Shown here piece after piece: positions 20,265 through 21,635 of a stretch of 37,107 nt of DNA (the first letter of the stretch is position 1; the number at the start of each line of letters is the position of its first letter). Source of the stretch: Hyphomicrobiales bacterium. GTDB lineage: Bacteria > Pseudomonadota > Alphaproteobacteria > Rhizobiales > Beijerinckiaceae. The stretch is from assembly GCA_903644085.1 (NCBI GenBank), contig CAHJXE010000001.1:1-37107 (forward strand). The letters run 5' to 3'. A program made the translations under genes and the position numbers. Under the pieces are notes generated by a model, which did no database searches, was not told the origin of the DNA, and saw only the letters and a program-made list of their open reading frames with translations.

Positions 20265-20471
20265 ATGCCGAGACGATTGCGAACCCTCATCGGCACGATC
20301 GCGATCCTCGTCTTCGTGTGCCTCTACGCGCTGGTCGCGATGGCGCTGGCCGAGAGCCGTGTCGTTGATGCACCACGCCTCGTGCAGACGCTGGTGTATT
20401 TTCTTCTGGGGATCGCCTGGATCGCGCCCGTCTTCCCGCTCATCGTCTGGATGGAGCGCCCGCGGGCCTGA
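20265..20471 (+). CDS. DUF2842 small membrane protein
   Basis: A 68-residue inner-membrane protein of unknown function. The ATG at 20265 has GGAGG four bases before it; the longer open frame from 20124 overlaps the ctaA 5' region and is not used. Two membrane segments (about 8-29 and 42-60) are linked by a short loop (AESRVVDAPRLVQ), and the end WIAPVFPLIVWMERP matches the DUF2842 pattern. It diverges from ctaA, an arrangement that hints at, but does not prove, a link to oxidase biogenesis. Confidence 0.85.
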   Translation: MPRRLRTLIGTIAILVFVCLYALVAMALAESRVVDAPRLVQTLVYFLLGIAWIAPVFPLIVWMERPRA

Positions 20472-20480
20472 TGGGCATCG

Positions 20481-20508
20481 TTGATTGTCTTCACCAGTTA
20501 GACATAGA
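20481..20508 (+). promoter_or_regulatory. Possible promoter of the HicB-like/HicA-like pair
   Basis: TTGATT (20481-20486) and CATAGA (20503-20508) are spaced by 16 bases in an AT-richer 73-base gap, 36 bases before the HicB-like start. The -10 match is only three of six, so this is weak. Confidence 0.3.
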
Positions 20509-20544
20509 GTCAGAGATGTCGAAGTGCCTTGGCGGGAACGGCTG

Positions 20545-20733
20545 ATGAGCGACGCGACAGAACAGGTCAGGCTGATCGAGCGAGAGGTCGGTCGGCAATG
20601 GATGATCACATCACCTGACTTACCGGGGCTATACGTGGCTCACACAGATCTGGACACGGCTCGCCATGCCGTGCCCGGCGCGATTCAGATGCTTCACGAG
20701 ATGCAGGAACGTGCGGCGAGCAAGCAGGATTAA
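20545..20733 (+). CDS. HicB-like/DUF1902 small protein (possible antitoxin)
   Basis: A 62-residue protein. The ATG at 20545 (MSDATEQ) follows a GGCGGGAACGG stretch; a longer start at 20485 is less likely. Residues 9-52 fit the HicB/DUF1902 half-fold: a beta-strand (QVRLIERE), RQWMITSPDLPGLYVAHTDL (the W...SPDLPGL...D signature) and a helix (DTARHAVPGAIQMLHEM). HicB antitoxins carry such a domain, often with a separate DNA-binding domain that is absent here. The next gene follows after 14 bases and is similarly small. GC content is about 57% in the sampled line, below the neighbours. It may be an antitoxin of a TA pair; function is not shown. Confidence 0.65.
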   Translation: MSDATEQVRLIEREVGRQWMITSPDLPGLYVAHTDLDTARHAVPGAIQMLHEMQERAASKQD

Positions 20734-20747
20734 GCCGTCACGCTCTG

Positions 20748-20933
20748 ATGGCCCGCTATCGATACGCCGACCTGCGAACATACCTCATCAGCCGAGGATG
20801 TCACACCGAAGGTGACGCGTTCGAAGCGGGTACCGGCTGGTTTCAGCCTGACTGGATGCCGTTCTCGTTGCCTGCGCTGGTCGACGGGTGGGTGGATGCC
20901 GACGTGATCGACGCGGTTCTTGCAGACCGATGA
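20748..20933 (+). CDS. Small protein with HicA-like layout, catalytic His missing
   Basis: A 61-residue protein of no certain family. Its layout follows HicA toxins: a first helix (YADLRTYLISRGC), a strand pair (GDAFEAGTGWFQP aligning by eye with the GSHHxFxxP strand), then PFSLPALVDGWVDADVIDAVLA, like the VPxxxxKxIxxGTLxxIL tail. Where HicA RNases have the catalytic histidine, a Thr or Gly stands. It is 14 bases downstream of the HicB-like gene, with a weak ribosome site, which suggests coupled translation. GC is about 58% in the sampled line. It could be a divergent toxin, a decayed toxin or an unrelated partner. The alignment is by eye only. Confidence 0.5.
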   Translation: MARYRYADLRTYLISRGCHTEGDAFEAGTGWFQPDWMPFSLPALVDGWVDADVIDAVLADR

Positions 20934-21002
20934 ATTTGCGTCGGCCCTGCGCCGCTTCGACGTTTTCCCGATGACAACTAAGCCTGACGTGTGAAACCAA
21001 GT

Positions 21003-21635
21003 CTAGCTGACACGCCCACCGGTCATCCAGCGGGCGATATCGAGGAACACGCTACCCGAGGCACGGTCGAGCGCCTGTGTGACGTCGAGCGCGGTCGACG
21101 TGCCGGCGGGCTCGCGGGCGGTGAAGACGCGGGCCCGCACGATCTTGCCCGCGGGCAGCGCGATGACCTTGGCGGAGATCTCGACGAAGGCCTCGCCCGT
21201 CGTGGCGTCGAGCTGGAACGCTCGCAGCTCGGTCGCGAGCTGGTACTCGGCGATGACGCCGTCGCCGGGCCGGGCGGCGGCGCGCAGGCGGGAGCCGTTC
21301 TCGAAGGTCTGGATCAGCCGGGCCTGGACGAGCCGCGGCAGCCGGTCCGACCATTGTCCGCCGCCGAGATTCGACACCGCGCCCGACGCGTCCTTGACCA
21401 GGATGCGCTCGCTCTCCAGCGGCGCCAACGCGACCGGCTCCACGACGACGAGTTGGCCAGCAACTCCGCCTCCACCGCGCGGCGGCTGCCCCGGTGCGGT
21501 CAGGTCGAAGGCGGTCACAGGAGCCGACGAGCATCCCGCGACCCCGGCCAGCACGGCCGCGAGAGAGGCCGAGATCACGAACCCGCGCAGGCTCGCCCTC
21601 GGACCGGTGGTGACGCTGGGAACACGATGTTGCAT
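21003..21635 (-). CDS. ABC-type transport auxiliary lipoprotein (PqiC/ABC_trans_aux family)
   Basis: An outer-membrane-type lipoprotein of 210 residues, last gene of the Mla-like operon. A signal peptide with lipobox LAGVAGCSS places the lipidated cysteine at about residue 35. The mature part fits the ABC_trans_aux family: APVTAFDLTAP at the start, LVVVEPVALAPLESERILVKD, WSDRLPRLVQARLIQTFEN and ALDRASGSVFLDIARWM at the end. Such lipoproteins pair with MCE-domain proteins in Mla/Pqi-type transporters, probably as the outer-membrane contact. It is 21 bases downstream of the mlaD-type gene, on the same strand. It is convergent with the HicA-like gene. Confidence 0.88.
   Translation of the reverse strand: MQHRVPSVTTGPRASLRGFVISASLAAVLAGVAGCSSAPVTAFDLTAPGQPPRGGGGVAGQLVVVEPVALAPLESERILVKDASGAVSNLGGGQWSDRLPRLVQARLIQTFENGSRLRAAARPGDGVIAEYQLATELRAFQLDATTGEAFVEISAKVIALPAGKIVRARVFTAREPAGTSTALDVTQALDRASGSVFLDIARWMTGGRVS

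What the first reader, a model, noticed from the sequence alone, without database searches (positions are those of the whole stretch)
20481..20933. HicB-like/HicA-like gene pair with a histidine-less toxin candidate
Two tiny genes (62 and 61 codons, 14 bases apart) lie in a lower-GC pocket (about 57-58% in sampled lines) between core genes. The first fits HicB/DUF1902; the second has a HicA-like strand and tail layout, but a Thr or Gly where the catalytic His belongs. It could be a new toxin-antitoxin variant with another catalytic residue, a decayed module or a non-toxic regulator pair.
Basis: partly seen in the sequence, partly recalled or inferred. Interest (0 to 1): 0.65.

Follow-up and report, generated by a model that had tools for sequence, protein, structure and literature searches.

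The report
Eroded copy of histidine-less HicBA-like pair
Two tiny neighbouring genes are a shortened, probably decaying copy of a small two-gene unit that resembles a bacterial toxin-antitoxin system, but whose toxin-like protein lacks the amino acid the known toxins need, so how the unit works is an open and testable question.

Summary
In detail: genes of 62 and 61 codons, 14 bases apart, in a low-GC pocket. Relatives of the pair occur at 11 other loci; the HicB-like gene lies directly upstream on the same strand at 12 of 12. A relative of the first protein models as a HicB fold. The second models as alpha-beta-beta-beta-alpha, and HicA 1WHZ ranks first of 350,542 chains, with weak scores. 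A distant branch of the same HicB-like gene pairs with proteins whose best Pfam hit is HicA_toxin, below its cut-off. No second protein read in either branch (12 and 3) has His at the HicA position; two intact ones contain no His at all. Both genes show purifying selection in Bosea, so missing His is a family trait, not decay. The window copy itself is eroded: gene 1 stops five codons before its ancestral overlapping stop, and gene 2 has TGA where 9 of 9 other aligned copies keep Trp, with homology continuing behind it. I call it a 3'-truncated, probably inactive copy of a His-less, Class-2-like hicBA module. Whether intact relatives are toxic is untested. New variant of a known kind.

The parts
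20545..20733 (+). gene 1, HicB-like protein, 62 aa (P0003)
   Evidence: ORF; relatives at 11 further loci; HicB-like fold of its intact Bosea relative
20731..20733 (+). early stop TAA of gene 1, five codons upstream of the ancestral stop
   Evidence: sequence; the relatives' gene 1 runs on to the start of gene 2
20746..20750 (+). relic junction TGATG: in-frame stop of the gene 1 frame overlapping the ATG of gene 2
   Evidence: sequence; same junction type in relatives
20748..20933 (+). gene 2, HicA-like histidine-less protein, 61 aa (P0001)
   Evidence: ORF; relatives; model and PDB match 1WHZ; no His at positions 27-30
20931..20933 (+). TGA stop at the codon where the aligned relatives keep Trp62
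   Evidence: Trp in 9 of 9 other aligned copies
20934..20978 (+). relic of the lost C-terminal tail of gene 2 (frame stays open to TAA 20979-20981, similar to relatives' tails)
   Evidence: (ICVGPAPLRRFPDDN) against IWTGPSRIQR in L014; profile matches run through the stop

Best explanation
The pair is a 3'-truncated copy of a small accessory two-gene module, HicB-like gene first and HicA-fold gene second, that belongs to a His-less side branch of the hicBA kind. In intact members the two genes overlap or abut, so the small HicB-like protein is probably translated first and masks the second by packing its helix on the second protein's beta-sheet, as HicB does to HicA (inferred). The second protein cannot use the HicA histidine. 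Most likely it acts, or acted, as an RNA-binding toxin-like protein that is held silent by protein 1 and works either without cleaving or with other residues (inferred, not shown). In the window, gene 1 has lost its last residues and gene 2 its conserved Trp62 and tail, so this copy is probably inactive or on the way out. Shown: pairing, order, overlap in relatives, truncations, absence of His, signs of selection on both genes in Bosea. Supported by prediction only: the HicB and HicA folds. Inferred: interaction, RNA binding, toxicity.
For: Pairing at 12 of 12 gene-2 loci; gene-1-led search: the 7 strong hits of 15 are all paired with gene 2. HicB fold: 4 of the first 7 Foldseek chains are named HicB (E 0.51-1.3 for the seven); VIA Z 6.5 to 6u0i. 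HicA fold: 1WHZ first of 350,542 chains, TM 0.62, VIA Z 5.0 over 59 residues, next row 3.0; 1WHZ is a HicA by sequence profile, E 1.7e-9. Bridge branch: same HicB-like gene with second proteins whose best Pfam hit is HicA_toxin, E 0.0012, 0.051, 0.032; profile against HicA E 9.7e-6. Truncation. Selection: G590-G629 dN/dS 0.06 (gene 1) and 0.07 (gene 2).
Against: No member of the gene-2 branch hits HicA or any other Pfam family convincingly. Its direct profile match to HicA is weak (E 0.0017-0.0024), and a control comparison expected to be unrelated (HicB-like profile against HicA) scored nearly as high and also beat 100 of 100 column shuffles, so that control is lenient. Foldseek E for 1WHZ is 2.2 and no gene-1 hit reaches E 0.001; VIA Z 5.0 is below what unmatched models often reach; release-factor domains reach Z 6.0 against gene 1. 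Toxicity, interaction and RNA binding were not tested. The window genome is an 85.7% complete draft in 398 contigs, so an assembly error at either stop cannot be excluded.
Confidence: 0.62

Rival explanations
1. The pair is functional in the window as it stands: the lost tails are dispensable, and the 62- and 61-residue proteins fold and bind each other as in the relatives.
For: The truncated 61-residue protein still models with mean pLDDT 80.9 and both helices and the strands. The start codon and core residues C18, G28, W31, F39, L41, P42 and D50 are kept. Against relatives, dN/dS of the window copy, where dS is not saturated, is 0.13-0.40 in gene 1 (7 of 11 comparisons) and 0.20-0.38 in gene 2 (3 of 9), so most of its history was constrained.
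Against: Both genes end early; the conserved Trp62 is lost; the former coding overlap has become a 14-base gap. dN/dS over such distances averages old constraint and says little about the present.
Confidence: 0.2
2. The family is a real toxin-antitoxin system whose toxin cleaves RNA with residues other than the HicA histidine (for example the conserved Cys18, Trp31, Asp50, Arg61).
For: Overlapping antitoxin-first two-gene layout, patchy distribution (6 of 67, 2 of 111, 1 of 48 genomes of three genera), two copies in one genome, gene 2 broken while gene 1 is intact in 2 of 6 Bosea copies. Invariant polar residues exist.
Against: No active site is known and no toxicity was tested. Invariant residues can serve folding. 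The broken copies could be assembly errors in draft genomes.
Confidence: 0.25
3. A non-toxic pair: a HicA-fold RNA- or protein-binding regulator kept by its HicB-like partner, evolved from a hicBA module after loss of catalysis.
For: The catalytic His is absent in each copy read, and two intact second proteins hold no His at all. Signs of purifying selection on both genes. In published HicA proteins, changing this His abolishes toxicity (PMC12297915, passages read).
Against: Patchy occurrence and mobile or phage-like surroundings at some loci fit a selfish or defence module better than a housekeeping regulator.
Confidence: 0.3
4. Gene 2 is unrelated to HicA; the alpha-beta-beta-beta-alpha outline is a coincidence of a small protein.
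For: No useful sequence-family match; weak Foldseek E; the control profile comparison is nearly as strong.
Against: The PDB search picks HicA first for gene 2 and HicB first for its neighbour, two separate searches that need not have agreed. The bridge branch links the same HicB-like gene to HicA-like second proteins.
Confidence: 0.15

Closest known systems
Class 2 hicBA modules (Gerdes 2024, mBio, PMC10865869)
   Same: Small HicB (63-103 codons) without DNA-binding domain encoded first, small HicA-fold protein second, genes close or overlapping.
   Different: The second protein lacks the catalytic His and reaches no HicA model. The paper's main text holds neither the word 'histidine' nor 'catalytic'; I read its introduction, the first third of its results and single passages, not its supplement.
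DUF1902-hicA pairs
   Same: HicB-type small gene directly upstream of a HicA match in the same bacterial family: 6 of the 8 DUF1902 matches in 41 genomes; gene-1 profile similar to DUF1902 (E 3.9e-5).
   Different: The HicA partners of those six keep the motif with His (such as GKGSHEIW, RGDHDIW); gene 1 does not hit PF08972.
HicA_toxin family members with Arg for His (GSR)
   Same: His-less HicA-family proteins already sit near or inside PF07927: 3 of 29 matches read here (L055, L056, L057), two of them over the family cut-off.
   Different: Those keep the G-S-x motif and match the family model; the window's branch does not match it.
HicA of Thermus thermophilus, 1WHZ
   Same: Best structural match of the model.
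   Different: 15% identity; 1WHZ belongs to the HicA profile, gene 2 does not.

Membership tests
HicA toxin (PF07927) | reaches the curated cut-off of the family model | tested here: not met
   No PF07927 match listed at E up to 10 in any of 9 members scanned. The bridge branch matches below the cut-off only.
[quoted passage not shown]
   Predicted only: helix 6-15, short strands, helix 51-59, pLDDT 80.9, pTM 0.63; 1WHZ first in PDB, VIA Z 5.0, rmsd 3.1, 59 aligned. Modest scores; an extra strand at 48-50.
HicA toxin (PF07927) | catalytic His at the start of the second strand | tested here: not met
   No His at positions 28, 29 or 30 in 10 of 10 aligned copies, nor in L016 and L072; two intact copies hold no His.
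HicA toxin (PF07927) | conserved Gly two residues before the His | tested here: inconclusive
   G28 is invariant in 10 of 10, but the alignments place the motif one to two residues apart.
HicA toxin (PF07927) | RNase activity and growth arrest | not testable with these tools
   needs expression and RNA assays
HicB antitoxin | reaches a curated HicB-type model (PF15919, PF08972 or other) | tested here: not met
   PF15919 18.9 bits against a cut-off of 27; listed at E up to 1 in 2 of 10 members.
HicB antitoxin | partial RNase H-like fold (three strands, helix) | tested here: met
   Predicted on the intact Bosea relative L014, pLDDT 88.5: three strands, one helix. Of Foldseek ranks 1-7 four chains are named HicB, 1wv8 is TTHA1013 (described with this fold in PMC10865869), 3kwr and 2dsy are HicB-like by recall; E 0.51-1.3. 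VIA Z 6.5 to 6u0i; release-factor domains reach 6.0.
HicB antitoxin | C-terminal DNA-binding domain (classes 3 and 4) | tested here: not met
   62-80 residues; the model ends in one helix, no HTH or RHH family listed.
Class 2 hicBA (Gerdes 2024) | hicB first, small hicB without DNA-binding domain, genes close or overlapping | tested here: met
   Order in 12 of 12 loci; overlap or within 1 base in 11 of 11 relatives (non-ATG starts assumed in some), 14 bases in the window. Window gene 1 is 62 codons, just under the stated range.
Class 2 hicBA (Gerdes 2024) | second gene encodes a HicA domain | tested here: inconclusive
   fold yes by prediction, sequence family no

The most novel reading that the evidence does not exclude
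A conserved clade of hicBA-like modules in which the HicA-fold protein works without any histidine: a toxin that blocks RNA by binding alone or with a new active site, still held by a HicB-like antitoxin. The window copy would be a relic of it.
Probability: 0.3. Interest if true: 0.6.

Novelty: new variant of a known kind. Interest (0 to 1): 0.42.

Why it matters
In the HicA proteins tested by mutation in the passages I read, one His at the start of the second strand is needed for activity (the gonococcal study also needs Gly22 and His29). A family that keeps the partner, the layout and the predicted fold, shows signs of selection, and yet has no such His (in two copies not one anywhere) would separate fold from catalysis. 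It would show either that HicA-fold toxins need no catalytic His, or how a toxin-antitoxin pair turns into something else. The sequence models tried here miss it, so such units may be undercounted.

Tried and rejected
Pfam, NCBIfam, PHROGs and PADLOC scans of gene 2: nothing useful (the NCBIfam hit to TruA, E 0.067, was ignored). NCBIfam on intact relatives of both genes and on the bridge branch: nothing useful. Plasmid and phage records: no relative of gene 2 (plasmids; phages, window protein only); the single plasmid hit, E 0.5 in a ParA gene, was dropped. Gene 1 was not searched in those two collections. IMG/VR viral contigs: none confirmed for either protein. PDB sequence search with both profiles: no meaningful match.

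Weak hits dropped: 7 of the 14 matches lie in long ORFs that by eye belong to one hydrolase-like family sharing a short HGWMKPDFPVF-like stretch. Three matches with E 0.0066-0.0095 were not followed. In one search, 5 of 15 gene-1 hits (in G006, G595, G026, G559, G053) were not counted as members; for two of them (G559, G026) a neighbour with a similar outline was seen (see Noticed in passing), for the other three none was recognised in the frames printed.

Profile comparison alone was rejected as proof: the gene-2 profile against HicA scored 20-21 and none of 100 column shuffles reached it, but the HicB-like profile against HicA, expected unrelated, scored 19 and was also reached by none of 100. 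In the comparison of gene 2 with the bridge branch, 1 of 100 shuffles reached the score. Two of the six rows of the DUF1902-linked HicA alignment A9 have tails that look frame-shifted (from L042 and L063).

HicA matches read for the His count: 29 of the 36; L050 (with a stop) and six without a fetched locus were left out.

Mobility by empty site: 5 relatives of the window's genus have a DUF2842 match (of 8 searched besides the window's genome). CtaA is next to it in 5 of 5, but the window's lipoprotein and MlaD genes were not found in the fetched flanks, so no clean empty site could be read.

Literature: the searches 'HicA' + 'lacks the catalytic histidine', 'HicA-like' + 'antitoxin' + 'active site residue', and 'HicA family' + 'histidine' + 'not conserved' + 'dsRBD' gave no paper. 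Other searches gave listings in which I looked only at the papers cited; PMC10440598 passages added nothing. This covers only the open-licence library.

Full report
WHAT IS THERE. The window (37,107 bases, 68.1% GC) carries two small plus-strand genes at 20545-20733 (62 aa) and 20748-20933 (61 aa), 14 bases apart. They lie between a DUF2842 gene (20265-20471; PF11003 E 6.5e-20) and a minus-strand lipoprotein-like gene (21003-21635, judged by eye), in a stretch of 58.6% GC; 1.4% of sampled 389-bp stretches of the window are as low as the pair.

RELATIVES AND PAIRING. Gene 1 has one Pfam hit, HicB_lk_antitox, E 0.0017, below its cut-off; gene 2 has none, and none of its relatives hits HicA. Searching 100 genomes (the window's own and relatives) with each protein found the same three places for both: the window, a second contig of the same genome (C318), and one relative (G007). 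Profile searches and one scan of genome contigs extended this to 12 loci in 11 genomes: two in the window's genome, G007, G577, G645, G1092, and six of genus g12 (G590, G629, G1061, G1062, G1066, G1074), which I take for Bosea because three of its contigs match named Bosea contigs in length and position. The gene-1 relative lies directly upstream on the same strand at 12 of 12. From the gene-1 side, the search of 396 genomes of the family gave 15 hits: 7 strong ones (E 2.4e-27 or better), all of them these same pairs, 3 of a bridge branch described below, and 5 weak ones. The distribution is patchy: 6 of 67, 2 of 111 and 1 of 48 genomes in three genera at E 1e-6. In 289 genomes drawn from the class, only the window's own matched at E 1e-4.

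FOLDS. The model of gene 2 (9-row alignment, mean pLDDT 80.9, pTM 0.63) has a helix, short strands and a second helix in HicA order. Among 350,542 PDB chains the first hit is 1WHZ (TM 0.62, Foldseek E 2.2, probability 0.44). The second look gives Z 5.0 over 59 residues, with the next row at 3.0. 1WHZ itself matches a HicA profile at E 1.7e-9. The model of gene 1 (an intact Bosea relative, L014, 12 rows, pLDDT 88.5) is three strands and a long helix. Of its first seven PDB hits (E 0.51-1.3) four chains are named HicB, one is TTHA1013, which PMC10865869 describes with the HicB fold, and two (3kwr, 2dsy) are HicB-like by my recall. Z is 6.5 to HicB3, although release-factor domains reach 6.0. Each score alone is weak, and no hit of either search is significant by E-value. 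The agreement of two separate searches on HicA and on HicB is the stronger point.

A BRIDGE. The gene-1 search also reached three more distant pairs, in G007, G001 and a third contig of the window's genome (L103, L096, L104). Their second proteins have PF07927 HicA_toxin as best Pfam hit (E 0.0012, 0.051, 0.032, all under the cut-off), and the three-row profile matches HicA at E 9.7e-6, with 0 of 100 column shuffles as good. They too lack the His: a Thr stands at the aligned place in 3 of 3. Gene 1 of both branches together matches the DUF1902 profile at E 3.9e-5. The direct link from gene 2 to the bridge branch is weaker: score 21.7, reached by 1 of 100 shuffles. In the same bacterial family 6 of 8 DUF1902 matches sit directly upstream of a HicA match that keeps its His, as reported for DUF1902 genes in general (PMC10865869: introduction, first third of the results and single passages read).

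THE MISSING HISTIDINE. In HicA, the His at the start of the second strand is needed for activity (PMC12297915, PMC7180214 and PMC11594946, passages read). In the gene-2 branch the alignments place residue 28, 29 or 30 opposite that His. Residue 28 is Gly; 29 is Ser, Thr, Met or Glu; 30 is Gly, Ala, Val or Ile: no His in 10 of 10 aligned copies, nor in the two broken ones. Position 27 is His in 6 of 10 aligned copies and Ala in the window. The proteins of G629 and G577 contain no His at all. This is not decay: between G590 and G629 dN/dS is 0.06 for gene 1 (dS 0.88) and 0.07 for gene 2 (dS 1.55, near saturation, so rough), and among the other Bosea pairs compared with L014 it is 0.07-0.20 (gene 1, 5 comparisons) and 0.14-0.26 (gene 2, 3 comparisons). 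His-less HicA relatives are not unheard of: 3 of 29 HicA-family matches read here have Arg at the place.

THE WINDOW COPY IS ERODED. In 11 of 11 relatives the two genes overlap or lie within one base. This assumes a CTG start in L003 and a TTG start in L020; in L016 the place of the start reads ACG. In the window the old junction TGATG is still there at 20746-20750, in the frame of gene 1, but an earlier TAA (20731-20733) now ends gene 1. Gene 2 has TGA (20931-20933) at the codon where 9 of 9 other aligned copies have Trp. Behind it the frame stays open for 15 codons that resemble the relatives' tails (ICVGPAPLRR against IWTGPSRIQR). Two of the six Bosea copies of gene 2 are also broken by frameshift (G1066, G1062) while gene 1 is intact beside them. 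That would fit a costly second gene, but these are draft genomes.

HOW IT PROBABLY WORKS. Intact members look like Class 2 hicBA modules: small HicB without DNA-binding domain, encoded first, apparently translationally coupled to a HicA-fold protein. I infer that protein 1 masks protein 2, as HicB masks HicA, and that protein 2 binds RNA. Without the His it either does not cleave or uses other residues. I put a toxin-like role in intact members somewhat ahead of a harmless regulator, and think the window copy is most likely inactive. Neither was tested.

SURROUNDINGS ELSEWHERE. In the three Bosea loci checked in detail (L014, L015, L085) the pair follows a LOG-type gene and precedes a phage-like head-gene cluster; the terminase, portal, prohead protease and capsid genes were confirmed by Pfam in L014, and those of L015 and L085 judged by likeness to it. 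In G590 (L085) an IS1595 transposase lies between. In G1092 the pair lies between an HTH gene and a VapE-like gene. No copy of gene 2 was found in the plasmid and phage records searched, nor of either gene in viral contigs.

VERDICT. Real, conserved, HicBA-like, His-less as a family, and truncated here. It is not filed as a HicA or HicB family member, since the catalytic His and the curated cut-offs were tested and not met. It is a new variant of a known kind, of moderate interest.

Noticed in passing
L014:3375-8757, L015:4792-10172, L085:388-6298: In Bosea the pair sits between a LOG-type gene and a phage-like head cluster (in L014 by Pfam: terminase, portal, prohead protease, capsid). By recall it looks like a gene transfer agent cluster; identity not tested.
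   Followed up: partly
L100 (minus strand) and L099: Two weak gene-1 hits (G559, G026) have a neighbour of 83-84 aa with the outline L...C...G...EWW...FTVP...F, similar to gene 2, without any Pfam hit: a possible third His-less branch.
   Followed up: partly
L055, L056, L057: HicA_toxin-family matches with GSR in place of GSH: HicA-family proteins without the catalytic His.
   Followed up: no
L087:5082-8810 (G1092:C162): A copy of the pair lies between an HTH gene and a VapE-like gene, as in a prophage or island early region.
   Followed up: partly
L016 and L072 (G1066, G1062): Gene 2 is broken by frameshift while gene 1 beside it is intact.
   Followed up: partly
G000:C318:3040-3488 and G000:C3:20235-20375: The window's genome holds a second pair of the same branch with open frames, after a two-component system (judged by eye), and a third pair of the bridge branch.
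   Followed up: partly
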